A stretch of DNA of 63,735 nucleotides from a virus. Each line of letters opens with the position of its first letter. Positions within the stretch are counted from its first letter, which is position 1. Shown in pieces: positions 829 to 49,129 of this stretch. The stretch is taken from positions 1-63,735 of the IMG/VR virus record IMGVR_UViG_3300042319_001709; one strand, written 5' to 3'. A program made the position numbers and the translations under genes. The notes beneath the pieces were generated by a model. It saw only the letters and a list, made by a program, of their open reading frames with translations. It made no database searches and was not told the origin of the DNA.

Positions 829-857
829 ATTATAGTTTATTTATGATTGCCTGTCAA
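829..857 (-). promoter_or_regulatory. sigma70 promoter for 691-822
   Basis: TTGACA (852-857) and TATAAT (829-834), both perfect consensus, with a 17-nt spacer. The spacer contains CATAAATA, also seen in the spacer of the promoter at 15005-15033. Confidence 0.85.
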
Positions 858-993
858 CCACTAAATTTATGTTTTATTTAGTCCAGTTGATTGGTATTCA
901 TTCAAGTATTATACAACAAAAAGCTTTCTTGGTCAAGGGGGTATTTTGCCAGAATCATGTAAATACAACAACACAACATAGAAATGGAAACAC

Positions 994-1269
994 ATGGACT
1001 TTTTAAAAATTGTTGCCGAGCTTGGCTTTCCTATTGCGGCTGCATGCGGTGCAGGCTACTTTGTGTTCCTGACCTTGAAGTTTATTCTTGCAGGCGTGAC
1101 TAGCAGTGTGAATGGCATGGGCGGAATCATCAAGGGACTGGACAGCAGAGTTGATACCATGACCAACCAATTGCAACGTATCGACGTCAAGGTTAGTCAT
1201 GCACTGGGGCTACAGCCTGACTATGATCGCATAAGCAGAGCAGAGCAAATAGATCAAAGGAAAGATTAA
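994..1269 (+). CDS. One-TM protein, holin-like candidate
   Basis: 91 residues: a hydrophobic segment at about residues 9-35, then a short amphipathic stretch predicted to form a coiled coil. The topology (N-terminal TM, polar helical tail) resembles UviB/BhlA-type small phage proteins proposed to be holins, but no sequence motif proves this. It is clearly a paralogue of 1488-1844: both start with a GFPI-containing helix and share the LDxR...Q.V segment. First gene of the plus-strand island; its stop overlaps the next start (TAATG). A TGTAAATA element near 956-963 could be a late promoter. Confidence 0.75.
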   Translation: MDFLKIVAELGFPIAAACGAGYFVFLTLKFILAGVTSSVNGMGGIIKGLDSRVDTMTNQLQRIDVKVSHALGLQPDYDRISRAEQIDQRKD

Positions 1270-1487: not shown

Positions 1488-1844
1488 ATGAATTTAGCAG
1501 AATTAATTAACAAATATGGATTCCCTATTATCAGCGCAGCTGGCATGGGATATTTCATTTACTATGTGTGGACCTGGGTAACCACTGAGATCAAGCCAGT
1601 TATAGGACAAGCCAATGGAACTCTTATTGCTCTTATTGATCGTATTCGTATGCTGGACAACGACCTTATAAGGTTGAATCAAAAAGTAGAAACAGTTATG
1701 GAACTGCGCGGCAAAACCATTGAACAAGAGCGCATTGAAGCTGATAAAGAGATCAACACTCGGCGCAAAAAAGTAGTAGAAGAAGAGAATTCAGCCAACA
1801 AAAGAAAAATTGCACCCAAGGAAGCCACAGGTAATGACCAATGA
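1488..1844 (+). CDS. One-TM protein, paralogue of 994-1269
   Basis: 118 residues with a hydrophobic helix at about residues 10-36 and a long, highly charged C-terminal helix rich in E, K and R. It shares the GFPI...A.G.GYF pattern and the downstream LDxxxxRLxQKV segment with 994-1269. The start uses an AGTAGG ribosome binding site 11 nt upstream. Its stop overlaps the start of the desaturase gene (ATGA). Holin or membrane-scaffold roles are both possible. Confidence 0.75.
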   Translation: MNLAELINKYGFPIISAAGMGYFIYYVWTWVTTEIKPVIGQANGTLIALIDRIRMLDNDLIRLNQKVETVMELRGKTIEQERIEADKEINTRRKKVVEEENSANKRKIAPKEATGNDQ

Positions 1845-2548
1845 TCGAAGTCATATACACACTGATTACAACTCACATTACTATCTTAAGTGTTACTTTA
1901 TTTTTGCACAGAGGCCAAGCACACAGAGGGATTGTGTTTCACCCTGTACTAGAACATTTTATGCGAGCCTGGCTATGGCTCACCACAGGCATGGTCACCA
2001 AGCAATGGGTTGCCATTCATCGTAAACATCATAGATTTACCGAACAACCGGGTGATCCACATAGCCCGCATGTGTACGGCATTAGCCGGGTGTTTTTTCG
2101 AGGAGCAGGGTTGTACCACCAAGCCAGCAAAGACACAGACATGGTCAACACTTATGGGCCAGGCACCCCAGATGATTGGGTAGAACGAAATGTATATTCC
2201 AAGCACAGTCGCTTGGGAATTGCTTTGTTATTGGGTGTAAATTTACTTTGCTTTTCCTGGTGGGGATTATTGATCTGGGTGATACAGATGTTATGGATTC
2301 CTTTTTGGGCAGCTGGGTTTATCAATGGAATTGGCCACTGGGCCGGCTATCGGAATAGCAACACCAAGGACCGCAGTTATAACATTGTGCCCTGGGGAAT
2401 CATTGTTGGTGGTGAGGAATTGCACAATAATCACCACCATGCGCCAGCAAATCCAAAACTAAGTCAACGATGGTTTGAATTTGACCTAGGTTGGGCTTGG
2501 TTCAAGATATTTGAAAAATTGAAATTAGCAAACGTTAGAATTGCCTAG
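1841..2548 (+). CDS. Membrane fatty-acid desaturase
   Basis: 235 residues with the three histidine boxes of the acyl-lipid/acyl-CoA desaturase family in order: HRGQAH (HxxxxH, about residue 24), HRKHH (about residue 62) and HNNHH near residue 198. Hydrophobic segments between them match the family's membrane hairpins. The enzyme would introduce a double bond into host acyl chains using a di-iron site and an external electron donor, acting in the inner membrane. It is shorter than most bacterial desaturases. Its 3' end overlaps by 14 nt the end of the convergent DD-peptidase gene. Changing membrane fluidity during infection is a plausible role but is inferred. Confidence 0.88.
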   Translation: MIEVIYTLITTHITILSVTLFLHRGQAHRGIVFHPVLEHFMRAWLWLTTGMVTKQWVAIHRKHHRFTEQPGDPHSPHVYGISRVFFRGAGLYHQASKDTDMVNTYGPGTPDDWVERNVYSKHSRLGIALLLGVNLLCFSWWGLLIWVIQMLWIPFWAAGFINGIGHWAGYRNSNTKDRSYNIVPWGIIVGGEELHNNHHHAPANPKLSQRWFEFDLGWAWFKIFEKLKLANVRIA

Positions 2549-3236
2549 CAATAGATTCAGCTTCAGGAATGCGTGTATGTGTGTTCTTGCTGCCCAGTAA
2601 TACCACAATTCGTCGACCAACATTGGTATCCAGCATCATGACAATGCATCCGCCGCTGGCACGGATGTAACCAGTTTTACTCACTAAGAAATTGTATTTG
2701 TCAACAATTGGGTTGGTGTTATTGATCACTACCCACTTTGCACGAGTGTGAATTTTAGTTTGCCTGATGTTGCTAGCATTGATGATTTCTTGGTAGCGAG
2801 ATGATTCTATTACCATCTTTACCAGGTCAGATGCAGTGCTAATATTCATTATGTTAAGGCCAGTGGAGTCAATGAATCTAGTGCTGGTCATACCAAGTTG
2901 TTGAGCTTTGCGATTCATTTCCTTAACACAAGAATTGCGAAAACCATCATAGTTATCACACAGTACCTGCGTTGCTTGATTGTCACTTTTTATTAATGCC
3001 AGTTTGATCAGTGCTCGACGAGTGTATGTTCCCAGCAGTTCATCAAGATCTTGTTGCTTGTCCAAAATCACCATGACTGTCATCAGTTTGGTGATGCTAG
3101 CAATACTGCGAGATTCTTGACTGTTGTTGCTGTGAAGTACGTGGCCATCACTATCTGCTACCAACCAACTTTTGGCAGTCATTGCAAAGGCTGCGGGACA
3201 GGCCAGCATGGCAATAGTGAGTAAAAATTTAATCAT
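2535..3236 (-). CDS. D-alanyl-D-alanine endopeptidase/carboxypeptidase (PBP7-like)
   Basis: 233 residues from the chosen ATG; the longer frame begins before a clean signal peptide (residues 1-18, ending AFA). The serine-peptidase S11 motifs are complete: SITK (S47-K50), SDN (84-86) and KTG (187-189). It is short, lacking the C-terminal anchor domain of DacA-type enzymes, like PBP7/PbpG. It should cleave D-Ala peptide bonds in periplasmic peptidoglycan. It is the last gene of the exported-protein run that starts with csgF, so it might open the cell wall for surface fibres as well as help lysis. That link is inference. Confidence 0.85.
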   Translation of the reverse strand: MIKFLLTIAMLACPAAFAMTAKSWLVADSDGHVLHSNNSQESRSIASITKLMTVMVILDKQQDLDELLGTYTRRALIKLALIKSDNQATQVLCDNYDGFRNSCVKEMNRKAQQLGMTSTRFIDSTGLNIMNISTASDLVKMVIESSRYQEIINASNIRQTKIHTRAKWVVINNTNPIVDKYNFLVSKTGYIRASGGCIVMMLDTNVGRRIVVLLGSKNTHTRIPEAESIARQF

Positions 3237-3295
3237 CAAATTGATTATAACTGAACTGTTGCCAGCATACACTGATATTGAACAAACTCAGAGTC

Positions 3296-5350
3296 TTACT
3301 TGCTTGTGGCTCTAAACACACCGTCCCAATCGCCGGGCAAGTTGGCCACACGCATTTCTGCAATACGTTCAACCCATAATTCGTAGTAATGGGTCATTTT
3401 TCCGTCAAATTCATCCTTGATGGTTTCAATCAAGGCAAGAGTCTTGTCCCACTGCTGTTTACGATAGTATTCTAACATCAAGTCGTGAATCTCTTTGGCA
3501 TGATTCCATTTGGACATTTCCTCAGCGGTGGGATTGTAGAACACTGTGTATATGGTTACACCTTCTTTTTTGCCCTTGACTGCAATACAGTCTAGTTCAA
3601 TTGTGAAATAATCAGTGCCCAATCGTTCAGCAGTGGCTGGGCCTAACACAATTAAAACTCCGTAATTTTTACTTTGTCCTTCGAGCCTACTAGCCAAGTT
3701 AACAGCGTCTCCAAGGCAGGTGTAATCAAACCTTTGTTCGCCGCCCATGTTGCCAACCACAACAACCCCAGTATTACAACCGATCCCAAGACCAAAAGGA
3801 GGCACGCCTTCTTCAGCAATTTCATCATTAAATATTTTAACGGCATCCAACATCTCCAGTGCAGCCTTAACAGAATCTTTCGCATGTTTAGTATTATCTA
3901 ACGGTGCGTTCCAAAATGACATTGTAGCATCACCGATGTATTTGTCAAGTGTGCCTTCGTTTTCAAGAATGACTTTGGTTACCACAGTCATATAACGATT
4001 CATGATTTTGGTTAGACCTTGTACATCTTTACCATAGTGTTCACTAATACTAGTAAAGCCACGCACATCGCTAAACTGAATTGTCAAGTCTTGTTCTGTT
4101 CCGCCTAGAACCAGTAAACTAGGATCCTTGACCAACTTGGCCACAAGATCTGGACTCAAGTAACTACCGAACTGTTTCTTGATCTGTTGCTTTTGCAAAA
4201 ACTCACTCACAAACTTTACCATAAAGGCATGCAAAGCGACCAAGCCAATGCCAACTGCAAAGGCAGCACTATCGAATAAGAATAGGTAATGGCTATAAGC
4301 AAACATACTGCCAGCAATGACGCTGCCAATCGTAACCACAGTTGCCGCAATGCCCACATAAGTCCACCTCATTAAAAAGATTAATAAAATGCCAGCCAAT
4401 GCAATGCTGACTATTTCTAGCTCATCGGCGTATCCAGGACGTTGAATTGATGTGCCACTCAACATTGTGCCTAACAAACTAGCCTGTAGTTCTTGTGGCC
4501 AAATTTCACCTCGACTGGTTGCAATTGGGTTTACAAGTCCTGCCGCACTCAGACCAACAATGACAATTTCGCCATTGAAGTCCTTGGGCAAATCAGCCAG
4601 ACTATGTTGTGAGGGACGCTGGCTCCAATCAATCCAAACACGGCTTAGCGGGTCCACTGTGATTTTGTTTAGCTTGGGAACCCTAAGTGCCTCTACACCC
4701 ATGTCTGTGATTTTAACTTGTATCTTTGTGTCGCCTGCTGCCAGCCTCAAAGTTTCCAATGCCAAACTAGGATGTATAGTGTCTTGGCTCATGATCAACA
4801 AAGGCATACGTCGAACAACGCCGTCAATCTCTGGGAATGTATTAACGACTCCAACACCGGCTGCACGTTCTTCTAGCATGGGAACGTTGGCAATGATACC
4901 AGGATACTCTACCAACGTGCCGTGTGCATCTTGACCCACAACTTGAACAGCTGATCCAAATGTAGTGTTTTTACTTTTGGAACCAGCCACTTGAGGCAAC
5001 ACAGTGGCGTATTGTCCAAGAGCTTTGCTCAGTTGAACATCGCCACCAAATCTGTCAGACTCGGGCATGAGCACGTTAAACACAACCAATCCAGCATTGC
5101 GCTTGTAAAGATCTTCAATGATGGCAGCATAGGTTGTTCGCGGGAATGGAAATTGTCCATATTTGTCCAATGCCGCTTCGTCGATGTTTACTGTGTGTAC
5201 TGGTATTTCTTTGGCAGGTTGGCTGGTAACCAATTGGTCAAAGTAGCGTAGTCTCACGCTTTCAACAAATGTAGGATCCCAGGCACGTACCAGCATCACT
5301 ATTAACAAGGTGAGCAAGGCAGTCCATGGGTTTAGTAATACTTTTTTCAT
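3296..5350 (-). CDS. CHASE2-domain adenylate cyclase
   Basis: 684 residues. N-terminal TM (about 8-24), extracytoplasmic CHASE2 sensor domain (about 30-300), a cluster of TM helices (about 308-375) and a class III nucleotidyl cyclase domain (about 415-610). Catalytic positions are intact: metal-binding D428 (FSDVRGFT) and D474 (KYIGD), purine-contacting K470 and T544, and N551/R555 (NLASR). The K/T pair indicates ATP rather than GTP as substrate. It should make cAMP in the cytoplasm in response to a periplasmic signal. Gene order places it downstream of the FecR and curlin genes, and CHASE2 cyclases commonly neighbour FecR proteins in bacteria. Confidence 0.93.
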   Translation of the reverse strand: MKKVLLNPWTALLTLLIVMLVRAWDPTFVESVRLRYFDQLVTSQPAKEIPVHTVNIDEAALDKYGQFPFPRTTYAAIIEDLYKRNAGLVVFNVLMPESDRFGGDVQLSKALGQYATVLPQVAGSKSKNTTFGSAVQVVGQDAHGTLVEYPGIIANVPMLEERAAGVGVVNTFPEIDGVVRRMPLLIMSQDTIHPSLALETLRLAAGDTKIQVKITDMGVEALRVPKLNKITVDPLSRVWIDWSQRPSQHSLADLPKDFNGEIVIVGLSAAGLVNPIATSRGEIWPQELQASLLGTMLSGTSIQRPGYADELEIVSIALAGILLIFLMRWTYVGIAATVVTIGSVIAGSMFAYSHYLFLFDSAAFAVGIGLVALHAFMVKFVSEFLQKQQIKKQFGSYLSPDLVAKLVKDPSLLVLGGTEQDLTIQFSDVRGFTSISEHYGKDVQGLTKIMNRYMTVVTKVILENEGTLDKYIGDATMSFWNAPLDNTKHAKDSVKAALEMLDAVKIFNDEIAEEGVPPFGLGIGCNTGVVVVGNMGGEQRFDYTCLGDAVNLASRLEGQSKNYGVLIVLGPATAERLGTDYFTIELDCIAVKGKKEGVTIYTVFYNPTAEEMSKWNHAKEIHDLMLEYYRKQQWDKTLALIETIKDEFDGKMTHYYELWVERIAEMRVANLPGDWDGVFRATSK

Positions 5351-5378
5351 ATAATATTTACCTGGTATAAATTTGAAG

Positions 5379-5609
5379 TCACCCGGAAGTTTTAACTACT
5401 TCCAGTATGGTAATTTCTAATACTCTATGCTTGCGATAATGCATAAAATTTTTGAACTTGGCTTCTATGTCCCGTTGAATGTATTCGTCATGGTAGGGCA
5501 TGGTGGCCGTGTCTTCGTAAGGCTCGTCGTTTTCGTTTAACGCTATGAAGCTGAGCTTGACTGTGCCTTGTTCTGGCTCTTTAAACATTTTAACAAGTTT
5601 ACTGAGCAT
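5379..5609 (-). CDS. 76-residue protein, unknown
   Basis: The ATG at 5607-5609 is chosen because the longer frame would overlap the upstream curlin-repeat gene; this start sits 8 nt after that gene's stop. The protein is charged and apparently soluble, with no signal peptide, unlike its neighbours. It may be a cytoplasmic accessory of the curli-like locus. A second ATG seven codons on is also possible. Confidence 0.6.
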   Translation of the reverse strand: MLSKLVKMFKEPEQGTVKLSFIALNENDEPYEDTATMPYHDEYIQRDIEAKFKNFMHYRKHRVLEITILEVVKTSG

Positions 5610-5617
5610 AAGAATAG

Positions 5618-7009
5618 TTATTGTCCTTGTGTTACACTCACACTGCATCCCGAAAGTGTGGCACACTGTTGTGTAATGTTGATGTTTTGTGCTGTGGCAC
5701 CCTGCTGAACAAGTGTGACATTACTAGCACCACCTGCATTGGTCAAATTAATTGTGGCTTTGTGACTGCCAGCATCCTTTTGATTGGCACTGACATTATG
5801 TCCGTTACCTGTTAAACTTAGATCAAGGAAACTTCCTGTACCCTGTTGTGAGATATCAAATATGTTGGTACTGCCGTTAATAATACCAAAGAATGTTTTC
5901 TCGCCGTTGCCTGTTTGTTTTAGTGTTCCGTTGTTGTTATTTCCTGTAACATCAACATAGGCAAAGTGCCCACTAGTGGAGCCGCCATCGTTGGCTTGTT
6001 TTAGGCTCAATGTGTTGGTACTGCCGCTGATGTTTAGACCCATATAATGCCCGCCGCTCTCGCTAGCATCTTGTAGGCCTGTTGTAGGATTACGTGCTTG
6101 CCAGAGTGAGATATTGTTTGTATTGCCTGCGATGTTAAATTCAATCAAGTTCTTGCCCAATGTGTCGCCTTGCTTGATGTTGATAGTATTGCTGTCACCA
6201 TTGATAACAGCATAGTTGGTGCCACCTAGTCCTGCAATTTTGTTATAGTTACCAGTTTGTTCAACAGTTACAGAGTTACTACTGCTACCAATTTTTTGAT
6301 CAATGTAAACGCTGTTACCTATTGTAAGATTATTATCTCTTGTTTTGGCAGCATTTCGTTGTGTAATCTGTGATGCAGTTATGTCACTATTCTCTGGCCA
6401 GGTGGGTGCGGCAGTACCCCCACCTCCTCCAGAGGATGCTGTTTGTCCAGCAGCCAAAGGCGTTGAACTAGGTGGTGTATATGCTTGTAATTGTGCATTT
6501 GATGGATATTCTTGTGTTACAGCCCAACTACCACTGCTACCGTTGGTGTATCCTTGTCCGGTAGTGATAAGTGTTCCCCACATCCCATTTCCATTGTAGA
6601 ATATAGCGCCATTGGCTAATGCTCTGAACGATCCTGTATTGTTGATTATTTTATATTTTGTACCATCACTGTTAAACACAGCCATGCCATATGTCCCAGG
6701 ATTGGTTGTGCTAGCAAAGAATCCAATATATCTTCCGTTACTACCGGCATCAGCAGTTTGCGCCGCCGTCCATCTTGCCGCGCTGGCTGTTTGTGTGGAA
6801 TAATTTATAGATGCATAGATGTAGTTAAACCCGCTGGCATATAACGTACCTCCCGATACATACCACTGTACATCAAATATCTGTGCTGTACTAAGTTTTA
6901 AGTCTGTAATTGCGGCCTGCGAGCATTTGGAAATACTCATTAGAAATACTGCAACAATTAACCATGCCCAGTATTTTGGTCTTGCTGAATAAAAAATATT
7001 TTTAATCAT
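5618..7009 (-). CDS. Large secreted curlin-repeat protein
   Basis: 463 residues with an N-terminal hydrophobic segment (about 14-32) acting as a signal or anchor. Residues 35-190 form a separate Ser/Thr/Gly/Tyr-rich domain. The C-terminal half (about 225-463) is a run of imperfect N/Q/G repeats of about 20-25 residues with the pattern G.xN.x.I.Q.G, typical of CsgA/CsgB curlin strands. Its start overlaps the FecR gene by 4 nt. It could be a fibre subunit, nucleator or adhesive tip. Cysteines near the C terminus are unusual for curlins. Confidence 0.8.
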   Translation of the reverse strand: MIKNIFYSARPKYWAWLIVAVFLMSISKCSQAAITDLKLSTAQIFDVQWYVSGGTLYASGFNYIYASINYSTQTASAARWTAAQTADAGSNGRYIGFFASTTNPGTYGMAVFNSDGTKYKIINNTGSFRALANGAIFYNGNGMWGTLITTGQGYTNGSSGSWAVTQEYPSNAQLQAYTPPSSTPLAAGQTASSGGGGGTAAPTWPENSDITASQITQRNAAKTRDNNLTIGNSVYIDQKIGSSSNSVTVEQTGNYNKIAGLGGTNYAVINGDSNTINIKQGDTLGKNLIEFNIAGNTNNISLWQARNPTTGLQDASESGGHYMGLNISGSTNTLSLKQANDGGSTSGHFAYVDVTGNNNNGTLKQTGNGEKTFFGIINGSTNIFDISQQGTGSFLDLSLTGNGHNVSANQKDAGSHKATINLTNAGGASNVTLVQQGATAQNINITQQCATLSGCSVSVTQGQ

Positions 7010-8178
7010 CTGTAGTTCTGATTGATAACAATCTGTCCTATAGTTTTTCCTGTGCCAAAGTTGTAACTGGTAGTCTGCATATCTTGTGTGACAATAACTT
7101 GCACTTTGGTATCTAGTGGTATAATAACGTTGGTATAGTTTCGGCTATTAGGACTTAGACTCTCATACAACCATCCAACTTGTTGTGTTTCACTTTGATC
7201 TTTGAATAGTTTTTTAACATAGGGATTATCAGTGTCGCTCAAAGAAGCCACAGCATTGGCTAAAGCGTCTTTATTTCCGGGAGTATCAACGCCAACTTTG
7301 GTTCCTTTAGCAGTGTCTTCGTCATCTTCGTTGGCACTACGACCTTGTTTGTAAGATCTATTACCACCACCACCTTCTTGCTTGCCTGCTACTTGTTGCT
7401 TCTCTTGATCCTTGGCATCATCTTTTTCATCTCGCTTGTCTCTATTATCAGAGCGTTTAGCATCACCTGTAGCCACGGCAGCGGCACGAGCAGCGGCAAT
7501 GACATTTACTCCGGTAGTTGTTTGTGGAGGACTGACCATCAAGTTGTTGCCAATGGCCATGCCATTAAGGGCTACAATAACAGCAGGGCTTGGCATGCCG
7601 TTTAGTGTTTCAACTAGAGTGGCTTGATAAGGACGGTTTAGTTTAACTATGCCTGCTGGTGTTTCTACATCGATAGCACCGCTACCACAGCTAAGACCTT
7701 TCAAGTTGATGTTTTGTTCAATTTCGCAAGTGGGCATCAGCATGATCATACTGGCACCTGTTTCGCTTACTGCCATGACAAAGTCAGTACCGCGAACAGC
7801 AATGGCTGCTGTGGGTGTGTTGATTTTTACGTTTTTGGGATCTTTGGCAATGCTACCTGATACGTAGCGAACTGTGCCTGCGGCTGCCTTGAGTCCCAGC
7901 TTACCGGCACCGCTTTTGGGATCATAAACAAAATCATCAATAACAAGGCTACTCGACTCAGTAACAGTGACATTTGTATCGTCTTTAAAAACAATCTTGA
8001 CTCGACCGTTTTTAGTTTCAACTCGGTCATTGGTTTTGATTTCTGTGCCTTTTGCAATTTGAATTGTATCTTTACCGCGTTTGATGATAGCAGTGCCAGA
8101 GGCTTCTGTAACAGAGCCAATGTCCGCCCATGCTGAACTGGCTATTAGTAAGCCCGCGATAAGAGAGGCAACTCTCAT
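7006..8178 (-). CDS. Secreted FecR-domain protein
   Basis: 390 residues with a signal peptide (1-18, ending AWA). Residues 19-150 match the FecR periplasmic fold: SGTAIIKRG, GxEIKTNDRVET and the INTPTAAIAVRGTDF signature. The family binds or senses periplasmic or outer-membrane signals. A low-complexity, highly charged linker (about 235-300, rich in K, D, E, R) separates it from a small C-terminal domain. There is no TM helix or sigma-factor partner, unlike the FecR of iron uptake. It lies between the two curlin-repeat genes and is translationally coupled to one of them. Confidence 0.88.
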   Translation of the reverse strand: MRVASLIAGLLIASSAWADIGSVTEASGTAIIKRGKDTIQIAKGTEIKTNDRVETKNGRVKIVFKDDTNVTVTESSSLVIDDFVYDPKSGAGKLGLKAAAGTVRYVSGSIAKDPKNVKINTPTAAIAVRGTDFVMAVSETGASMIMLMPTCEIEQNINLKGLSCGSGAIDVETPAGIVKLNRPYQATLVETLNGMPSPAVIVALNGMAIGNNLMVSPPQTTTGVNVIAAARAAAVATGDAKRSDNRDKRDEKDDAKDQEKQQVAGKQEGGGGNRSYKQGRSANEDDEDTAKGTKVGVDTPGNKDALANAVASLSDTDNPYVKKLFKDQSETQQVGWLYESLSPNSRNYTNVIIPLDTKVQVIVTQDMQTTSYNFGTGKTIGQIVINQNYR

Positions 8179-8187
8179 TGTTGCCCC

Positions 8188-8976
8188 TTAGTTCTTCTGC
8201 GTTATATTAAACATGCCTGAATTAGACACGCTCTTGATATTGATAACATTGTCAATAGTACCAGTCTGGCTCATTGTAAATGTGTTGCTATTACCTGCAA
8301 CATCAACCCAGATGCTAGAACCAGTAGCACCTGTTGAACGTTGATTGATATCAAATGTGTTAGTATCACCAACTACTTTGATAGTTTGACTGTGCTTGTC
8401 ACCGATTGCATCAATTCGAAAAAGGTTGCTGTTACCAGTTACATCAACTGCACTTTTTAGATCAGCACCTGTACCACGGAATTGTAGATCATTGCTGTTA
8501 CCGGTGAACTTCCAGTTTAGGTCAGCAGCATTACAGCCTGTTAGGGCTGTTCCACCTGTTGAAGCTGTGCCGTATCCACAGGCTGCATCAACTCGATTGC
8601 TATCACCAATCTGTTGAATGGTGACATTAACTCCTTTACCAGAGCCTGTTGTATCATTGACTGCTTCTAGACTGATGTCATTGTTAACACCAATTTGGCG
8701 AGTAACGATTTTTTGATCAATGCCGCGTAGGTACACAGGTCTGCCGCCAGATCCAGCTTTGTTACCTGTACCATCTTGTGTCATGTTGACGTTGGGATTG
8801 TCACCGCTTTGGTCAATAAAGATACGGTTAGTTGTGGCAATGGCCAGTGCGGCTGTTGCGTTAGGACTAACTGTAGCCATGTTTGGAATCACCGGCGCAC
8901 TTGGTGCTGTGACCGCAGTCTGTGCCATTGCAGGTAATGATACTGCTAGTAAAATTGCTAATATTGTTTTTTTCAT
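8188..8976 (-). CDS. Curlin-repeat protein (CsgA/CsgB-like)
   Basis: 262 residues, signal peptide (1-18, ending AMA). The mature chain is almost entirely N/Q/G/S/T-rich strands of the form I.Q.G..N and GNSN.F.I, repeated about ten times, as in amyloid curlin subunits. It is longer than CsgA (about 150) and its repeats are less regular. It sits 30 nt downstream of csgG, as expected for an exported substrate of the channel. Whether it is the major subunit or the nucleator cannot be told from sequence. Confidence 0.82.
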   Translation of the reverse strand: MKKTILAILLAVSLPAMAQTAVTAPSAPVIPNMATVSPNATAALAIATTNRIFIDQSGDNPNVNMTQDGTGNKAGSGGRPVYLRGIDQKIVTRQIGVNNDISLEAVNDTTGSGKGVNVTIQQIGDSNRVDAACGYGTASTGGTALTGCNAADLNWKFTGNSNDLQFRGTGADLKSAVDVTGNSNLFRIDAIGDKHSQTIKVVGDTNTFDINQRSTGATGSSIWVDVAGNSNTFTMSQTGTIDNVINIKSVSNSGMFNITQKN

Positions 8977-9006
8977 TTTTGTTCTCCCGGTTTTTTACCG
9001 ATGTTA

Positions 9007-9945
9007 TTATTTCCAGAACTGTAGTCTGGACCAGACACTTTTTTCTTTGCTTCCTTCATCACGCTTTGCGATATCGGACTGTAGTGGAGTGGATGGAGCT
9101 TTGGCAGCTCCTTCACGTGGGGTTTCCTTTTGAACCAACTCATTAGATTTCTCCTTGAATTTCCATAGGCCCGTGCGTTCACCTTTGTTAATCAATTCAA
9201 TTACTGCTGTTTCAATTGCTGAACGTAGAGCGTAGTTGCCTGGCTCGTTGAATGTTTGACTTGAGTCAAACTCAAATGCTCGTGTTGCCTGGTTGAAAAA
9301 TTTCAACGCAGTAGTGCCATCAGCAGTACTGAGCAAGTTCTTTTCCACTGTAACAGTGGTTAATACTTCCCCAGTTTGTACACTTACCAAACGTAGGCTG
9401 ATAACAACCACGTCTTGAGTGTAGGCAGTTTGTGCGCCGATACCCAACCAACGTGCTCCAGTGCCACCTGTTAGGGTATTGCTGTTGTAATCAATAATGC
9501 CACCTTCTAGAATAACACCTGCCATTTGTAGTGGAGGTAACATCTTGGCATTTGCGCCTTCGTAGATCTCACGTGTCTGTTTGATCATCTGACGTTCTTT
9601 TAACAAGTTGTCTAGGCCAACACGTTCAACAACTGTGAACCATTGACGATTGCCGACTTCTTGAAGACTCTTCATCAAGTATGCTTCAGCACCTTGTGTA
9701 ACTGCTGTTGAGAACAAGCTCAACGTTGAACTTGGTTTACGTTGTCCCGTCAGATCTTTGAAACCATATACAGCCACTGTTACTGCTGGACCTGCCGGTG
9801 CTGGTATGTTGGCAAAACTTTTGTTGATTGTTTCGCTGACACGAGCTTCTTCTTTGATCTTCGTATCTCCCCAAGGACGTACTGTTGAGCAACCTGCCAA
9901 GGCTACAACTGCTAGAGCGATCAAGGATAATTTAATTGTTTTCAT
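9007..9945 (-). CDS. csgG: CsgG curli secretion channel lipoprotein
   Basis: 312 residues with a lipoprotein signal ending LAGC (C19 the acylated residue). Full-length match to the CsgG fold: VAVYGFKDLTGQ near residue 57, FSTAVTQGAE, a DNLLKERQ helix, GGIIDYNSN, and paired strands around VVVISLRLVSVQTGEVLTTV forming the outer-membrane beta barrel. Nine copies should assemble into the pore that exports curlins. The constriction loop differs from E. coli: F before STAV is kept, but the Tyr and Asn positions are Ser and Leu and there is one extra residue. The C-terminal tail (about 265-312) is charged and longer than usual. Confidence 0.93.
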   Translation of the reverse strand: MKTIKLSLIALAVVALAGCSTVRPWGDTKIKEEARVSETINKSFANIPAPAGPAVTVAVYGFKDLTGQRKPSSTLSLFSTAVTQGAEAYLMKSLQEVGNRQWFTVVERVGLDNLLKERQMIKQTREIYEGANAKMLPPLQMAGVILEGGIIDYNSNTLTGGTGARWLGIGAQTAYTQDVVVISLRLVSVQTGEVLTTVTVEKNLLSTADGTTALKFFNQATRAFEFDSSQTFNEPGNYALRSAIETAVIELINKGERTGLWKFKEKSNELVQKETPREGAAKAPSTPLQSDIAKRDEGSKEKSVWSRLQFWK

Positions 9946-9954
9946 TTTTTCTCC

Positions 9955-10428
9955 TTAAAAACCAAAACTAGCAATTGGAACTGTAACAGTGGTCACAGTG
10001 CCCTTGGCATCTACCACTGTTAATGTAACTCGGTCATTGGCTTTGACCCAGGTTACTGTATTGTTGTCTAATTTAAACGTTCCTGTAGTGGGATTTACAC
10101 AACCGGGAATTGCTGAACCATCTGCGGCTGCACAACGATTTTGAAATAAGTTGTTGCTTAACTGTGTAGCCAGTTGGGCATATACTTGGCTTTGGAATAG
10201 ACTCATGAATCTATTCAACGGTGTGTTTAGTAAGTCGGCTTCGGCTTTGGCGATGGCGGCTTTTTTGTCTGCTTCGATAGCATCACGTCGTGACTTTTCT
10301 ATTGAATCAATGGTCAATACGTGACTGCTAAATCCAATTCCGCTAAAGGCCGGATTTTTAAACTGATGAACAAGCTCGGAGTGAGCAACAATCGGGCACA
10401 GTAACAAAACCATTAGGATTTTTTTCAT
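9955..10428 (-). CDS. csgF: CsgF curli assembly factor
   Basis: 157 residues with a signal peptide (1-17). The mature N terminus carries QFKNPAF (22-28), equivalent to the FxNPxFGG segment that inserts into the CsgG channel. Residues 40-110 are helical and the end is a beta-rich domain with TVTWVKANDRVTLTVVDAKG, as in CsgF. Known role: it caps CsgG at the cell surface and couples secretion to nucleation by CsgB. It lies 9 nt upstream of csgG. The ribosome binding site AGGAG is clear. Confidence 0.88.
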   Translation of the reverse strand: MKKILMVLLLCPIVAHSELVHQFKNPAFSGIGFSSHVLTIDSIEKSRRDAIEADKKAAIAKAEADLLNTPLNRFMSLFQSQVYAQLATQLSNNLFQNRCAAADGSAIPGCVNPTTGTFKLDNNTVTWVKANDRVTLTVVDAKGTVTTVTVPIASFGF

Positions 10429-10496: not shown

Positions 10497-10865
10497 CTAG
10501 AACAAGATCCAAGCCGCCAGGCCAAGATATGTAAGTTGGTGCGCTAGTTGATCTAGGCCGAATTGATTCCAAAATAAAGGTTTGGTTTGATCCTTGATAC
10601 CAAAATGAACCTTGGCCCAATCAATATGATAATGTATCACACCCTCAATCACAGTGACCAACAAGATGGTTCCAGCGGGTACAGGATGCACCAGGCTGAA
10701 TATCAGTAGCACAACCAAGCTGGTCCATACATGGTCTAGACTGTGGCTAATCCCACAAAGATCACGATAGATTCCCTTGCGCACAGTTTGGGCATAAGTT
10801 TGTATCACAAAGTCAGCATAGTAGTGCTTGACTTGCAACAGGCATAATAGTATTAGGATTTCCAT
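10497..10865 (-). CDS. DUF3307-like membrane protein
   Basis: 122 residues, about four hydrophobic segments. The conserved histidine/aspartate pattern of DUF3307 is visible: KHYYADF near the N terminus, HSLDHVW, HYHIDWAK in the middle and LDQLAHQLTY near the end. The family is found in bacteria and many large phages; its function is unknown. It precedes csgF by 68 nt and may share its transcript. Confidence 0.75.
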   Translation of the reverse strand: MEILILLCLLQVKHYYADFVIQTYAQTVRKGIYRDLCGISHSLDHVWTSLVVLLIFSLVHPVPAGTILLVTVIEGVIHYHIDWAKVHFGIKDQTKPLFWNQFGLDQLAHQLTYLGLAAWILF

Positions 10866-15090: not shown

Positions 15091-17006
<1,916 letters not shown>

Positions 17007-45236: not shown

Positions 45237-45760
45237 GATATAATTCCTGTGATTTGCAATGTGTATCTTGGCACACGACTTAAATTACCAGCCATGTGCA
45301 ATGTACCAGCACGCCAACAAACAAATGTTCCAGCTTGGTAATGACTAAAGCTTTTGCCGCCGGCTTCAAACAAGAATCCTGGCTGCCAATCTTGTAAAAA
45401 AACAATGATACGAGAAACGTCCTGTTGCTCTAGCCCGTGAAATTTGCAGTATTGTGTGTATGAGTCTGAGTGCTCGGGAATGATGTCACCGGGCAACATT
45501 CTAAACCAGGCACAACCTTCGTGTTGTATGCTGTACCCCTGCTGACGTAATACATCGAGTATCTGCGATTGACAATCTGGTTGCCGGCGTTTGTGGTCAA
45601 CTTTCATGCCAACTTTAAATTCACGACCAAAAGTATTTCGCCAATCTTCAACCACAACAGGATCTTGAAATTCACCAGACCCGTCAAAATAATAATCTAA
45701 TTTGGATATTTCTTCAAGATCCCAGATTGGATCTATATGCCCGGTGTACAGCTGAGTCAT
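45233..45760 (-). CDS. Cupin-fold Fe(II)/2-oxoglutarate oxygenase-like protein
   Basis: 175 residues. The jelly-roll strands hold an HSD (PEHSD, about 96-98) motif, and a later His in TLHMAGN (about 154) and Arg near RVPRYTLQI. These resemble the metal site of aspartyl/asparaginyl hydroxylase-like enzymes. It is a second oxygenase in this cluster. The protein overlaps 45757-46716 by 4 nt at its start. Confidence 0.72.
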   Translation of the reverse strand: MTQLYTGHIDPIWDLEEISKLDYYFDGSGEFQDPVVVEDWRNTFGREFKVGMKVDHKRRQPDCQSQILDVLRQQGYSIQHEGCAWFRMLPGDIIPEHSDSYTQYCKFHGLEQQDVSRIIVFLQDWQPGFLFEAGGKSFSHYQAGTFVCWRAGTLHMAGNLSRVPRYTLQITGIIS

Positions 45761-46716
45761 TTATTATACCAAGCCCAGGCATGCGTAATCATGTCACGCA
45801 AACTGTGTTGACGCCAGTCCTGGGCCAATAAACTAAATTTGGCTGCACTTGCAGTAAGCTCAGCTGGATCTCCTGACCTTGGCTGATCTTCAATTACCTG
45901 TATGTCCTTGTTGGTAATCTCACGTGCCAGTGCAATGATATCTCTGTTGCTTGATCCATTGTTGCTACCAAGGTTATAGGCATCAATTGGAATGGATCGA
46001 TCAATTGCCAAGATGTGTGCTCTAGCAATATCTTCAACGTGCACATAGTCCCTTATACAAGTGCCATCGGGTGTGGGATATGATGTGCCATACAGCACAA
46101 AGGGTTCATTGTTGCGAGCACTTTCTAGCACCCTTGCAATGATATGTGTGGCATTTGGCCTCTGTCCATGTCTGCCTAGGCGGTCTGCGCCGCATGCATT
46201 AAAATATCTAAAAGTTACAAAATCTAGACCATATGCTTGATGATAGCTCTTCAACATCATCTCAACCATGAGTTTACTGTCACCGTAAGGGCTAAGTGGC
46301 ATGGGAGGATCTTCTTCTTGGCAGGGAGTCATGATTGGCTCGCCATACACTGACGCAGAACTACTAAATATCACTCGAATTTTGTTTTGTAATTTGTTTG
46401 CTATAATATAATCAAGCAAGATTTTTGTTCTAACAAAGTTGTTTTGATAATACAGTTCAGGGTCACGCATGCTGGGACCAACCAAGCTAGTGCCGGCACA
46501 ATGAATTATTGCACTGGTGTCATAATTGGAAATTACATTCAATGCAACATCGCTTGAAAAATTACCTTGATAAAATTCATCAAATGCAGATGCTAGTTCT
46601 GGCGTGGCTGGTTGAAGGTCAATACCCACCACATGATATCCTGCAGATTTCAACTGCAATGCAGTCTGTCCACCAATAAATCCAGAAGCCCCGGTTACAA
46701 TAATTGTTTTTGTCAT
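45757..46716 (-). CDS. galE: UDP-glucose/galactose 4-epimerase (GalE-type)
   Basis: 319 residues with GASGFIGG (9-16) binding NAD, SSASVYG near 117 and the YxxxK pair YGDSKLMVE (about 143). The NACGADRLGRHG block and the RDYVHVEDIA region match GalE. It interconverts UDP-glucose and UDP-galactose (or N-acetyl versions). It starts the left half of the sugar cluster, with its own consensus promoter at 46742-46770. Confidence 0.9.
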   Translation of the reverse strand: MTKTIIVTGASGFIGGQTALQLKSAGYHVVGIDLQPATPELASAFDEFYQGNFSSDVALNVISNYDTSAIIHCAGTSLVGPSMRDPELYYQNNFVRTKILLDYIIANKLQNKIRVIFSSSASVYGEPIMTPCQEEDPPMPLSPYGDSKLMVEMMLKSYHQAYGLDFVTFRYFNACGADRLGRHGQRPNATHIIARVLESARNNEPFVLYGTSYPTPDGTCIRDYVHVEDIARAHILAIDRSIPIDAYNLGSNNGSSNRDIIALAREITNKDIQVIEDQPRSGDPAELTASAAKFSLLAQDWRQHSLRDMITHAWAWYNK

Positions 46717-46741
46717 AATTTCCTTAGATGTGTATTTTTAA

Positions 46742-46770
46742 ATTATACAATATAATTTTAAAAAAGTCAA
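46742..46770 (-). promoter_or_regulatory. sigma70 promoter for galE
   Basis: TTGACT (46765-46770) and TATAAT (46742-46747), 17-nt spacer; the -35 box lies in the last codons of the epimerase gene upstream. Confidence 0.82.
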
Positions 46771-47699
46771 ACCCAATTGGGGTTTTCTAAATACCAGTTG
46801 ACAGTCTGCAACAATCGTTGCTCAAACGACATTGTCTCTGTCCAACCTAGATCATACAGTTTACTGGGATCTACAGAAAAACATAAATCATGACCAGGTC
46901 GGTCAATCGGCACCAGGCGATACTTCAACTCTTTGCCCATGGCTTGTGCAATCAACTGTGCAAAGTCTAGATTGTTTATAAACTTCCGGCCGGCACTGTT
47001 CCATTTTTCACACCGAGCAGTCTGTGTGTTCAAAATAAATCTTGTATGGCTGGCTACATCTCCAGCATAGAACCAACGCCTACCACCAACTAATTTGCCA
47101 GGGCCCACATGTATATCTAAAGTTTCGTTGTTGAGTAATTTGCGTATAATGATCACGGGTAACCGATTACTCTGGCAACGTGGACCAAAGGTATTGTTGA
47201 TGTGTATGATACTTGCAGGAACATTGAATGAATTGGCATAGGCCATGCACAGTTCTTCACCGGCTGCTTTGCCAGCCGCATAGGGACTATTACTGTTGTA
47301 GGCATCGTTGGGCTGACTGTCTTGACCAATGGGTATAGGTCCAAATACTTCGGCACTGCTGTAATACACAAATCTTTCAACTCCGGTGTGGCGGGCATGT
47401 TCCAACAAGTTCAGTGTGCCCAACACATTGTCCATGACAGATGCAGTGGGGTCACTCAAGCTGTCGGCTGAACTGGGATTAGCGCCAGCGTGTAATATAA
47501 TATCTGCCGCTGGCAAGTGTTTACAAGGATTTTTAATGTCGTGCTCGATTACCGTGACACGATCAAGCATGTGATTGATACGTTCCATATTGGTTGAACC
47601 AGGTCGTACCACACAGATCACACGGTGATCTTTTAAAAATTCTTCTACTAAGTAGTGACCAATGAATCCATTGGCTCCGGTAATCAGTGCTGTTTTCAT
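46767..47699 (-). CDS. NAD-dependent sugar epimerase/dehydratase
   Basis: 310 residues, extended short-chain dehydrogenase. TGANGFIGHYLVEE (7-20) is the NAD site, YYSSAEVFG near 117 and YAAGKAAGEE (about 144-153) is the Tyr-Lys catalytic motif. FNVPASIIHINNTFGP replaces the usual RPFNVYGP. Product unknown; the neighbours make activated deoxysugars. Overlaps the FkbM gene by 4 nt. Confidence 0.87.
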   Translation of the reverse strand: MKTALITGANGFIGHYLVEEFLKDHRVICVVRPGSTNMERINHMLDRVTVIEHDIKNPCKHLPAADIILHAGANPSSADSLSDPTASVMDNVLGTLNLLEHARHTGVERFVYYSSAEVFGPIPIGQDSQPNDAYNSNSPYAAGKAAGEELCMAYANSFNVPASIIHINNTFGPRCQSNRLPVIIIRKLLNNETLDIHVGPGKLVGGRRWFYAGDVASHTRFILNTQTARCEKWNSAGRKFINNLDFAQLIAQAMGKELKYRLVPIDRPGHDLCFSVDPSKLYDLGWTETMSFEQRLLQTVNWYLENPNWV

Positions 47700-48379
47700 G
47701 GTTGATATTTGTAAACGATATCAGATTTGTGACTTAAAATTTTACTGTATCCTACATTGTTTAAAAAATTGTCAAGCATGGTTTTATTTGTGCCGTATCT
47801 TTGAGCCCAGGGCTCGTACCATTCTATCATAAGTAGAGGATAATATTTTTCAATAGTACGTTGTGCGCCTTGCAACGCAAAAAGTTCATAGCCTTCAATG
47901 TCTAATTGTATCAAATCACAGGCTGGCAAATTTAGGTCATCAATGATCACTGTGGGTATATTACCCGTACCGCTTACATGAATAGCGCCAGAATCATGCC
48001 TTCTGTCTAGATTTACAAATTTTCTTTCATTGCCTACACAGGCCTGTGTTTTTATTACATTGGCACCGCAATTCAAAGTCAAACATAAAAAATTTATTGG
48101 ATCTGGCTCAAATGTGTACACAGTATCAAATCGTTGACTGAACTGTCTTACATACTGTCCACAGTTGCCGCCGGCTTGCACTACAATAGCATTGCCAGTG
48201 ACATGTGTCATTAGTTGATCAAAAAATTCTGGGAGTATTCGAAACTGATGCATGTAATTCCACATGCCTTGATCGTACCGAGGCCACCACAGATTTTTTA
48301 ATTCGTCGTAGGGCGAATTGTCTCTGAATTCAATTGAGTTTTCTAGCCCTGGAATCTTTTGGTATAAGGAATTTGGCAT
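47696..48379 (-). CDS. FkbM-family methyltransferase
   Basis: 227 residues. VVQAGGNCGQYVRQF (about 65-79) is the SAM-binding loop, YTFEPDP near 88 the acidic loop and LIQLDIEGYE (about 149) the FkbM signature. FkbM enzymes O-methylate sugars of surface polysaccharides. It overlaps the downstream epimerase gene by 4 nt, consistent with capping or decorating the sugar made by this cluster. Confidence 0.88.
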   Translation of the reverse strand: MPNSLYQKIPGLENSIEFRDNSPYDELKNLWWPRYDQGMWNYMHQFRILPEFFDQLMTHVTGNAIVVQAGGNCGQYVRQFSQRFDTVYTFEPDPINFLCLTLNCGANVIKTQACVGNERKFVNLDRRHDSGAIHVSGTGNIPTVIIDDLNLPACDLIQLDIEGYELFALQGAQRTIEKYYPLLMIEWYEPWAQRYGTNKTMLDNFLNNVGYSKILSHKSDIVYKYQP

Positions 48380-48385
48380 GATATT

Positions 48386-49129
48386 TTATATTCTAACAAT
48401 CATTTCCTGTGCTAGTACTTCATCTGGCAGGAATGGTGTTAGATCGTGTAAGCCTGCTTGCTTTCCATTTTTTAATGCTTGGGCTGGTAATATTTCTTGC
48501 TGGCCAAGACATTGGCAGTCTATAATGACTGGGCCTTTTTCCTTAAGGGCATTGGGAAAATGAAGACGCAGATCTTCTTTTGTTCTGATATCCACACAAG
48601 GCATGCCAAATGCTACCGCAATATTTTTAAAGCTAGGAAACCACAGGCCACTTTCAGCACTGGTTCCATGCACCCTTCCTTCAAAGTATTTTGTCTGTGT
48701 ATTTTTAATACTTAGGTAACCGTTGTTATTGAGAATAACAAACTTGATATTCAACTCGTGTTGTTTAACTGTTGCTAATTCTTGAATGTTACTCATAAAA
48801 CTACCATCGCCGATGATACTGATAACCTGTTGATTGCTAGCCATACTTACACCAATGGCTGCAGGTAACGCCCACCCCATATCTGCTTGTGCAGGACTAA
48901 AAATAAATCTTTGTCCGTGTTTGGCATTTAATGCAACAGGACCTGCATAGCTAATGCTGCCAGCATCGCCCATTAAAATGTCATCGGCTAAACTATGCTG
49001 ATTGATCGCATCAAGTATGGCATAGATGTTTAACTGAAAATCATTTTCAGCTGGACGATATTCTTCTTGCATTACCGGCCATTTGGACCTCCAGTGATTG
49101 CATTTTTCAATCCATTCTTGTCTTGTCAT
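48386..49129 (-). CDS. ThDP-binding (PP) half of acetolactate-synthase-like enzyme
   Basis: 247 residues. GDGSFMSN (107-114) to NNNGY (134-138) is the Mg-thiamine diphosphate motif, GDG-X26-NN. The N-terminal half (LMGDAGSIS, AQADMGWALPAAIG) is the standard PP-domain start. It ends where a large-subunit acetohydroxyacid synthase ends. The N-terminal domains are encoded by the adjacent gene 49126-50133, overlapping by 4 nt. The two should assemble into one active enzyme. Confidence 0.88.
   Translation of the reverse strand: MTRQEWIEKCNHWRSKWPVMQEEYRPAENDFQLNIYAILDAINQHSLADDILMGDAGSISYAGPVALNAKHGQRFIFSPAQADMGWALPAAIGVSMASNQQVISIIGDGSFMSNIQELATVKQHELNIKFVILNNNGYLSIKNTQTKYFEGRVHGTSAESGLWFPSFKNIAVAFGMPCVDIRTKEDLRLHFPNALKEKGPVIIDCQCLGQQEILPAQALKNGKQAGLHDLTPFLPDEVLAQEMIVRI

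What the first reader, a model, noticed from the sequence alone, without database searches (positions are those of the whole stretch)
2535..10428. Curli secretion and assembly genes on a phage genome, linked to FecR and CHASE2 signalling
In one minus-strand run the window encodes CsgF, CsgG, two curlin-repeat proteins, a FecR-domain protein, a CHASE2-adenylate cyclase and a DD-peptidase, with gaps of 30 nt or less (or overlaps) between most genes. This is enough to build an export pore, a cap and two kinds of amyloid-like subunit. CsgE, CsgC and CsgD are absent. Isolated CsgG-like genes have been annotated in marine phages, as far as I recall, but a subunit-plus-secretion-plus-signalling set seems unusual. 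Infected cells might make extracellular fibres before or at lysis, changing aggregation, phage release or superinfection.
Basis: partly seen in the sequence, partly recalled or inferred. Interest (0 to 1): 0.92.

Follow-up and report, generated by a model that had tools for sequence, protein, structure and literature searches.

The report
Phage curli operon with swappable adhesin
A large virus of bacteria carries genes that should let an infected cell grow sticky amyloid (curli) fibres wired to a sensor enzyme; such phage curli operons were already known, but here the fibre protein shows an interchangeable head, the FecR protein ends like a fibre subunit, and a pair of small proteins travels with the set.

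Summary
One strand of the window encodes CsgF, CsgG, a curlin (Cur1), a FecR-domain protein, a second curlin (Cur2) and a CHASE2-adenylate cyclase. The set is not new: this gene order is published for SAR11 phages (PMC9599517) and lies in HTVC008M and Melnitz. The DD-peptidase is only an occasional neighbour (9 of 55 relatives; directly behind the cyclase in 2).

Found here, and not found in the papers I searched:
(1) The operon occurs on 15 contigs of 200-383 kb; the window's DNA polymerase is nearest 469-490 kb jumbo phages.
(2) Cur2 joins curlin repeats to an exchangeable N-terminal domain (ten types; PA14 and F5/8C in relatives).
(3) The FecR protein ends in a curlin-like repeat (moderate evidence).
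(4) A paralogous pair of small proteins (window 994-1269, 1488-1844) accompanies the operon almost always. It probably corresponds to the published "histidine kinase" but shows no kinase domain.
(5) Five cyclase active-site residues are kept in 117 of 117 copies; a sixth (Asn) is Ser in 52.

Best reading: infected cells display an adhesin-bearing curli fibre whose assembly or contact is reported to a cAMP-making sensor. No function was tested. New variant of a known kind.

The parts
994..1269 (+). Small paired protein A (phrog_18771), hydrophobic N-terminus and charged C-terminus
   Evidence: PHROG 5.4e-30; pair linked to the module in 76 of 80 loci
1488..1844 (+). Small paired protein B (phrog_18771)
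   Evidence: PHROG 1.7e-31; no 19-residue segment over hydropathy 1.6
2535..3272 (-). Peptidase_S11 (DD-peptidase); probably not a core member
   Evidence: Pfam 2.2e-35; in 9 of 55 loci, directly behind the cyclase in L004 and L032
3296..5350 (-). CHASE2-adenylate cyclase
   Evidence: Pfam; D428, K470, D474, D548, R555 kept in 117 of 117 copies
5379..5666 (-). Small ORF between Cur2 and the cyclase, overlapping Cur2; found again only in L004
5618..7009 (-). Cur2: N-terminal exchangeable head, C-terminal curlin-like repeats (about residues 230-463)
7006..8178 (-). FecR-domain protein with curlin-like C-terminal tail
   Evidence: Pfam 3.1e-10; tail tests
8188..8976 (-). Cur1: curlin-repeat protein
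   Evidence: Pfam Curlin_rpt 22.5 bits; conserved Q/G/N ladder; model pLDDT 80.9
9007..9945 (-). CsgG outer-membrane pore
   Evidence: Pfam 1.8e-50; Cys19 invariant in 11 copies
9955..10428 (-). CsgF
   Evidence: Pfam 1.1e-12
10497..10865 (-). DUF3307 membrane protein directly upstream of csgF; membership uncertain
   Evidence: Pfam 7.4e-8; directly before csgF in 51 of 55 window-lineage loci, 0 of 80 HTVC008M-like loci

Best explanation
This is a phage-encoded curli (type VIII secretion) module that lets the infected cell display adhesive amyloid fibres. Inferred steps: Sec exports the subunits; CsgG with CsgF secretes them; Cur1 builds the fibre; Cur2 joins it through its own curlin repeats and displays an exchangeable adhesin or carbohydrate-binding head; the FecR-domain protein, which ends in a curlin-like repeat, docks on fibre or subunits at the periplasmic side and reports assembly or contact to the periplasmic CHASE2 domain of the cyclase, which makes cAMP in the cytoplasm. 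The small paired proteins are a membrane partner of this circuit. The likely benefit is holding neighbouring cells or particles next to a cell about to release virions. Shown here: gene content, order, linkage, domain swapping, purifying selection, conserved cyclase residues. Inferred: fibre formation, FecR-cyclase coupling, the role of the pair, and the benefit.
For: Order kept in 50 of 55 and 58 of 80 relatives, the rest being truncated contigs. dN/dS 0.03-0.22 wherever it could be computed for module genes and the pair (many dS values saturated or not computable). Cur2: among relatives with CsgG 88-93% identical the repeats are mostly 78-86% identical (three of them 50-55%), while the heads are 85%, 43-47%, 27-29% or undetectable; L028 shows the reverse (CsgG 72%, repeats 28%, head 81%). 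Ten head types in 80 clustered Cur2 proteins; PA14 1.4e-13 and F5/8C 5e-11 in relatives. FecR tails: at least two h.h.Q motifs in 143 of 158, shuffled mean 31, maximum 49; CsgG 9/204, CsgF 1/197, AC 5/117; hhalign to Cur1 probability 53, E 1.3e-4, other controls 0.7 or less, column shuffles at most 0.4. Cyclase residues 117 of 117. The pair occurs with cyclase, csgF/G or FecR in 76 of 80 loci.
Against: No experiment was done. Foldseek found no significant match for the Cur2 or Cur1 models (best E 0.06 and 0.013). The window's own Cur2 head has no known family and its repeats miss Pfam's cut-off. No Pfam curlin hit in the 10 FecR proteins scanned, and the hhalign probability of 53 is moderate. 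Asn551 of the cyclase is Ser in 52 of 117. No cNMP-binding protein in 14 phage records, so the cAMP target would have to be a host protein. Melnitz infection showed no clumping (PMC9004378).
Confidence: 0.5

Rival explanations
1. Superinfection exclusion: the fibres coat the infected cell and mask receptors, so that other phages cannot adsorb. The parts are the same; only the benefit differs.
For: Same anatomy; proposed in PMC9599517 (passage). A variable Cur2 head could reflect variable receptors to be masked.
Against: Masking the own surface does not obviously need a cAMP sensor or PA14/F5/8C-type heads. Nothing in my calls separates it cleanly from adhesion.
Confidence: 0.17
2. Lysis control: CsgG-CsgF act as an outer-membrane pore that depolarises or weakens the envelope and times lysis (proposal for Melnitz); the small pair could be a holin/antiholin-like pair and the S11 enzyme a helper.
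For: Proposed in PMC9004378 (passages). One of six pair members hits a holin PHROG at 1.1e-4 over 23 residues. S11 is near the module in 9 of 55 and 8 of 80 loci.
Against: Does not explain two curlin-repeat proteins under purifying selection, the swapped heads or the FecR tail. In 50,697 named phage records the pair is found only in curli phages, odd for a general holin. No Pfam holin match.
Confidence: 0.15
3. Uptake pore: the ungated CsgG channel lets nutrients or cofactors into the infected cell.
For: CsgE gate absent in 10 of 10 records; suggested in PMC7029224 and PMC9599517 (passages).
Against: Needs neither CsgF, curlins, heads, FecR nor cyclase, all of which are retained.
Confidence: 0.07
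4. The small pair is a separate phage function that merely sits near the module.
For: On the opposite strand and several kilobases away in the window lineage; L182 has one member and no module gene; L173, L180 and L213 have the pair and cyclase but no CsgG in the record.
Against: Linkage to cyclase, csgF/G or FecR in 76 of 80 loci with different arrangements; absent from other named phages.
Confidence: 0.2

Closest known systems
Pelagiphage type VIII secretion module (HTVC008M and pelagimyophages, PMC7029224; HTVC023P-type podophages, PMC9599517)
   Same: Same genes in the same order, CsgF-CsgG-CsgA/B-FecR-CsgA/B-adenylate cyclase; no CsgE; CsgG 43% and cyclase 39% identical to HTVC008M.
   Different: Different, apparently jumbo, phage lineage; DUF3307 upstream of csgF; the small pair lies on the opposite strand beyond the cyclase instead of directly before csgF; a different Cur2 head.
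Melnitz (OM43 methylophage, PMC9004378)
   Same: Same order; the pair directly before csgF.
   Different: The passages read state that csgA and csgB are lacking, yet the GenBank record lists two curlin-repeat proteins, FecR and cyclase. Melnitz Cur2 is curlin-like from its mature start, without a separate head.
Bacterial csgFG-curlin loci (L140, L141, L143-L155; by record title 13 alphaproteobacterial, 2 labelled Acidobacteria)
   Same: CsgG with curlin-repeat genes, and CsgF in 14 of 15.
   Different: FecR, CHASE2-cyclase and the small pair in 0 of 15 within the fetched flanks, up to 9 kb.
FecR-domain protein beside a CHASE2-cyclase in Alphaproteobacteria (class of the Hyphomonas genome G001)
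   Same: 5 of 20 chosen CHASE2-cyclase loci have a FecR-domain protein in the fetched stretch.
   Different: csg genes in 0 of 20. Of the five FecR reading frames, the two that are complete show no h.h.Q tail; the other three are cut by the stretch.

Membership tests
Curli / type VIII secretion | CsgG channel with its conserved domain and a lipobox-type cysteine (cysteine role recalled) | tested here: met
   Pfam 171.6 bits, cut-off 20.8; Cys19 invariant in 11 copies
Curli / type VIII secretion | CsgF | tested here: met
   48.7 bits, cut-off 25.8
Curli / type VIII secretion | Curlin-repeat subunits | tested here: met
   Cur1 22.5 bits over cut-off 20.7; window Cur2 13.7 bits, below it; Cur2 relatives up to 55 bits
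Curli / type VIII secretion | CsgE periplasmic gate (in E. coli; called not essential in PMC7029224) | tested here: not met
   0 of 10 records, E. coli control positive
Curli / type VIII secretion | CsgC and CsgD | not tested
   not searched for one by one
Curli / type VIII secretion | Amyloid fibres on the cell surface | not testable with these tools
   needs expression and dye binding; Foldseek of the models inconclusive
FecR anti-sigma / ferric citrate regulator | FecR domain | tested here: met
   3.1e-10
FecR anti-sigma / ferric citrate regulator | Cytoplasmic sigma-binding N-terminus followed by a transmembrane segment (recalled definition) | tested here: not met
   one hydrophobic stretch, residues 3-21, then the FecR domain from residue 51; simple hydropathy only
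Class III adenylate cyclase | Two metal Asp, Lys/Asp base-recognising pair, transition-state Asn and Arg (roles recalled) | tested here: met
   D428, D474, K470, D548, R555 in 117 of 117; Asn551 in 65, Ser in 52; the window has Asn
Histidine kinase (published label for the genes before csgF) | HATPase_c domain | tested here: not met
   none in the pair members scanned; 0 of 10 phage records over cut-off, one match of 2.7e-4 below it in a 738-aa frame; 14 of 14 controls positive
Holin | Match to a holin family, or membrane lesion activity | tested here: inconclusive
   one of six pair members hits a holin PHROG at 1.1e-4 over 23 aa; no Pfam holin; activity not testable here

The most novel reading that the evidence does not exclude
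A phage-built contact organ: infected cells extend amyloid fibres bearing interchangeable, lectin-like heads (Cur2), and a fibre-docked FecR protein with a CHASE2 cyclase and a dedicated protein pair turns fibre assembly or contact with neighbouring cells into a cAMP signal that tunes host physiology or lysis timing. The module would be a mobile adhesion-and-sensing cassette shared by SAR11, OM43 and jumbo phages.
Probability: 0.25. Interest if true: 0.87.

Novelty: new variant of a known kind. Interest (0 to 1): 0.6.

Why it matters
Phage curli is published and common in marine viral data, but in the passages I read it has no demonstrated function. The swappable head on Cur2 gives a specific, testable clue (what does the head bind?). 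The curlin-like FecR tail suggests why FecR and a cyclase travel with curli: as a sensor of fibre assembly rather than an iron regulator. The near-constant small protein pair is a defined handle for genetics. Large contigs carrying the module suggest that it is not confined to phages of genome-streamlined marine bacteria.

Tried and rejected
Led nowhere or weak: Foldseek of the Cur2 and Cur1 models against the PDB, no match at E 0.001; CsgA fibril structures appear only at E 1-2, and phage tailspike beta-helices are among the weak Cur1 matches. T4-type late promoter TATAAATA: 2 in the window, chance 1.85. Sigma-70 and terminator scans near chance (29 against 22.9, 10 against 9.0). Rfam: tRNAs only. 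L099 as a podophage: one weak protein match. The bacterial host of the window's phage was not determined. MW574966 shows no curli annotation in the 50 kb of 59.8 kb that I viewed. No tool showed the habitat of the contigs; 'freshwater' in my notes is recall and is not claimed here.

Considered and rejected: misassembly (many contigs); DD-peptidase as a core member (9 of 55, directly behind the cyclase in 2); 'FecR = ferric citrate regulator' (no sigma-binding or transmembrane part seen by simple hydropathy).

Limits: loci are not independent; several contigs recur (e.g. L046/L053; L028/L158; L025/L166; L007/L161) or have near-identical twins (L029/L058; L008/L009). Without the pair's partners: 4 of 80, of which three end within 300 nt of the pair and one, L182, has a single member and no module gene. 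Of 14 pair/cyclase records without csg in the locus, 11 have CsgG elsewhere and 3 (L173, L180, L213) do not. Of 13 csg records without the pair in the locus, 7 have a match elsewhere (one of them partial, at the record's end) and 6 do not; those 6 show no cyclase, or one cut off, in the fetched locus. I chose these 14 and 13 records from longer lists. One search clustered 80 of 81 complete Cur2 proteins of 350 aa or more; the clustering is single-linkage, the set holds recurring contigs, and one 'type' (L124) is curlin-like from its start. FecR and tail counts leave out ORFs under 250 aa or touching contig ends. Small 'AC' profile hits of about 100-140 aa upstream of csgF in a few loci (e.g. 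L035, L054) are probably spurious. The 20 bacterial cyclase stretches were picked by hand from the top of the list, leaving out two genomes (G189, G027) and second hits; some are short.
Full report
WHAT IS THERE. The window is a 63,735-base virus record. Minus strand, in reading order: DUF3307 10497-10865, CsgF 9955-10428, CsgG 9007-9945, Cur1 8188-8976, FecR-domain protein 7006-8178, Cur2 5618-7009, a small ORF, CHASE2-adenylate cyclase 3296-5350, Peptidase_S11 2535-3272. Beyond it, on the plus strand, lie a fatty-acid desaturase 1841-2548 and two small paralogous proteins, 994-1269 and 1488-1844. The window also has 11 tRNA genes and a DNA polymerase whose best matches among named phages are Sinorhizobium phage Phosso and Agrobacterium phage Atu_ph07 (469-490 kb; 48 and 46% identity). 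So it is most likely a fragment of a jumbo phage.

IT IS REAL AND CONSERVED. A search with CsgG gave 55 IMG/VR relatives, and one with the HTVC008M CsgG gave 80 more, the best 80 of 194. CsgF-CsgG-Cur1-FecR in this order stands in 50 of 55 and 58 of 80; the other 27 loci end inside the module. Fifteen distinct contigs of 200-383 kb carry CsgG (lengths; CsgG and, for L194, 93). L004, from a different record of 72 kb, is identical to the window in all eight protein stretches compared. dN/dS is 0.03-0.22 wherever it could be computed for module genes and the small pair; dS is often saturated or not computable.

IT IS ALREADY IN PRINT. PMC7029224 (passages read) reported csgF, csgG and neighbours in pelagimyophages. 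PMC9599517 (passages and the methods section) reported CsgF, CsgG, CsgA/B, FecR, a second CsgA/B and adenylate cyclase in pelagiphages, preceded by one or two 'histidine kinases'. PMC9004378 (passages) discussed csgF/csgG of Melnitz. PMC9636769 and PMC7003362 (passages) mention csgG/csgF in sediment viruses and csgG in marine phages. GenBank records of Melnitz and HTVC008M show the same order as here. For my additions: no paper held curlin + 'PA14 domain' + phage. Searches on curli or CsgG with phage, jumbo or large phage, freshwater, pelagiphage and type VIII secretion listed no paper whose title or abstract start describes this module in jumbo phages; most listed papers were not opened. PMC12619734, on a new large aquatic phage lineage, does not mention curli. 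The library lacks most subscription papers.

CUR2 IS AN AMYLOID-TYPE SUBUNIT WITH AN EXCHANGEABLE HEAD. Its C-terminal half carries an invariant Q/G/N ladder in 21 aligned copies, and Pfam curlin repeats reach 7.6e-15 in relatives. The part before it changes independently. Among relatives with CsgG 88-93% identical, the repeats are mostly 78-86% identical (three relatives 50-55%), but the head is 85% (L018), 43-47%, 27-29% or undetectable; L028 shows the reverse, with CsgG 72%, repeats 28% and head 81%. All-against-all comparison of 80 Cur2 proteins gave ten head types, one of which is curlin-like from its start; one type unites HTVC008M with distant loci (L054, L167). Recognised domains are PA14 (L054 1.4e-13, L003 2.7e-6) and F5/8 type C (L006 5e-11, L007, L008); 4 of the 10 proteins scanned had neither a PA14 nor an F5/8C match nor a curlin match over cut-off (L027, L071, L034, L023). 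The window's own head type (38 members) has no Pfam name. That such heads bind glycans is inference from what PA14 and F5/8C domains do elsewhere (recalled).

FECR CARRIES A CURLIN-LIKE TAIL. The C-terminal 48 residues hold at least two h-x-h-x-Q motifs in 143 of 158 proteins, against a mean of 31 and a maximum of 49 in shuffled tails, 9 of 204 CsgG, 1 of 197 CsgF and 5 of 117 cyclases; Cur1 148 of 179, Cur2 116 of 120. The motif was chosen after seeing the tails. Profile comparison with full-length Cur1 aligns the tail to the last repeats (residues 196-242 of 260), probability 53, E 1.3e-4; with the Cur2 C-terminus probability 27; CsgG, CsgF and cyclase controls 0.7 or less; 30 column-shuffled tails each at most 0.4 against Cur1 and 0.6 against Cur2. 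Against it: no Pfam curlin hit in 10 FecR proteins. The protein has one hydrophobic start and no further segment over the threshold, unlike the recalled architecture of the FecR anti-sigma factor.

THE CYCLASE. D428, K470, D474, D548 and R555 are present in 117 of 117 complete copies; Asn551 in 65, Ser in 52. In the class of the Hyphomonas genome G001 (Alphaproteobacteria by its record title), 110 of 190 genomes hold a match to the cyclase profile at 1e-20, many covering only the cyclase half. Of 20 loci picked from the top of that list, 5 have a FecR-domain protein in the fetched stretch and none has csg genes, whereas 15 bacterial csg loci show neither FecR nor cyclase in their flanks. The phage module thus looks like a joining of two bacterial cassettes. 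No cNMP-binding protein was found in 14 phage records (controls positive in 10 of 14), so any such cAMP target would be a host protein.

THE SMALL PAIR. Two paralogues (phrog_18771) stand directly before csgF in HTVC008M, Melnitz and 63 of 80 HTVC008M-type loci; in a subgroup one member lies between csgF and csgG; 75 of 80 loci have two. In the window lineage they mostly lie on the opposite strand beyond the cyclase; 25 of 55 loci show both, most of the others being cut before that place. Searching with the pair itself gave 80 loci: 79 hold two members, 75 a cyclase match, 55 csgF/G, 76 any of these or FecR, in several different arrangements. Among 50,697 named phage records it occurs only in six, the Melnitz and HTVC008M records; these are six of the seven records with a CsgG match, the seventh being 1.5 kb long. 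It was found in 0 of 190 genomes of the class of G001 (control 6 of 6). Pair members show no kinase domain, and none of 10 phage records, HTVC008M and Melnitz included, has HATPase_c over the cut-off. L156, filed in a Pelagibacter MAG, shares a terminase (60%), a head-tail connector (56%) and two further genes with the podophage MW574966 of PMC9599517 (six matching frames, two of them antisense) and has pair-CsgF-CsgG-Cur1-FecR-cyclase, where that paper places its histidine kinases. That the published HK is this pair is my inference; the paper's supplement was not open to me. By simple hydropathy only member A has a segment over 1.6, so 'membrane protein' is likely but not shown for B.

MECHANISM AND RIVALS. 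I think adhesion is the most likely function: a fibre whose head is swapped this freely is built to bind something variable. Superinfection exclusion uses the same parts and is not separated by my evidence. A lysis pore or an uptake pore needs neither curlins nor heads nor a FecR tail. The coupling of FecR to the cyclase rests on co-inheritance, on neighbouring FecR and CHASE2-cyclase genes in some bacteria, and on the tail; it is inferred, not shown.

VERDICT. Observation confirmed; module already known; a new variant in what is probably a jumbo-phage lineage, with three additions that I did not find in the papers searched (Cur2 head swapping, FecR tail, the near-constant pair).

Noticed in passing
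window 10497-10865 (-): A DUF3307 membrane protein directly precedes csgF in 51 of 55 window-lineage loci but in 0 of 80 HTVC008M-type loci; role unknown.
   Followed up: partly
window 15091-16710 (-): A GroEL-like chaperonin gene (539 aa), recognised by eye from the translation; not searched.
   Followed up: no
window 45757-54275 (-): A run of genes with three nucleotide-sugar epimerase matches (phrog_540) and an aminotransferase, suggesting surface-sugar synthesis.
   Followed up: no
A4: L018, L031, L042 versus window, L041: The cyclase half looks exchanged between phages with similar CHASE2 halves, with Ser in place of the transition-state Asn in one type.
   Followed up: partly
L139, L142, L156: Contigs filed in bacterial MAGs (Rhodobacteraceae, Flavobacteriaceae, Pelagibacter) carry the phage module and are probably phage contigs in those bins; the genome holding L139 has ten pair-member matches on five contigs.
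   Followed up: partly
window 829-857 and 908-936 (-): Two strong sigma-70-like promoters in front of the tRNA cluster, one a perfect TTGACA-17-TATAAT.
   Followed up: no
L013:15105-15593 and similar places in L006, L008, L031: A conserved protein of about 160 aa with a hydrophobic C-terminus (by eye), between Cur2 and the cyclase in several relatives; no significant Pfam family.
   Followed up: no
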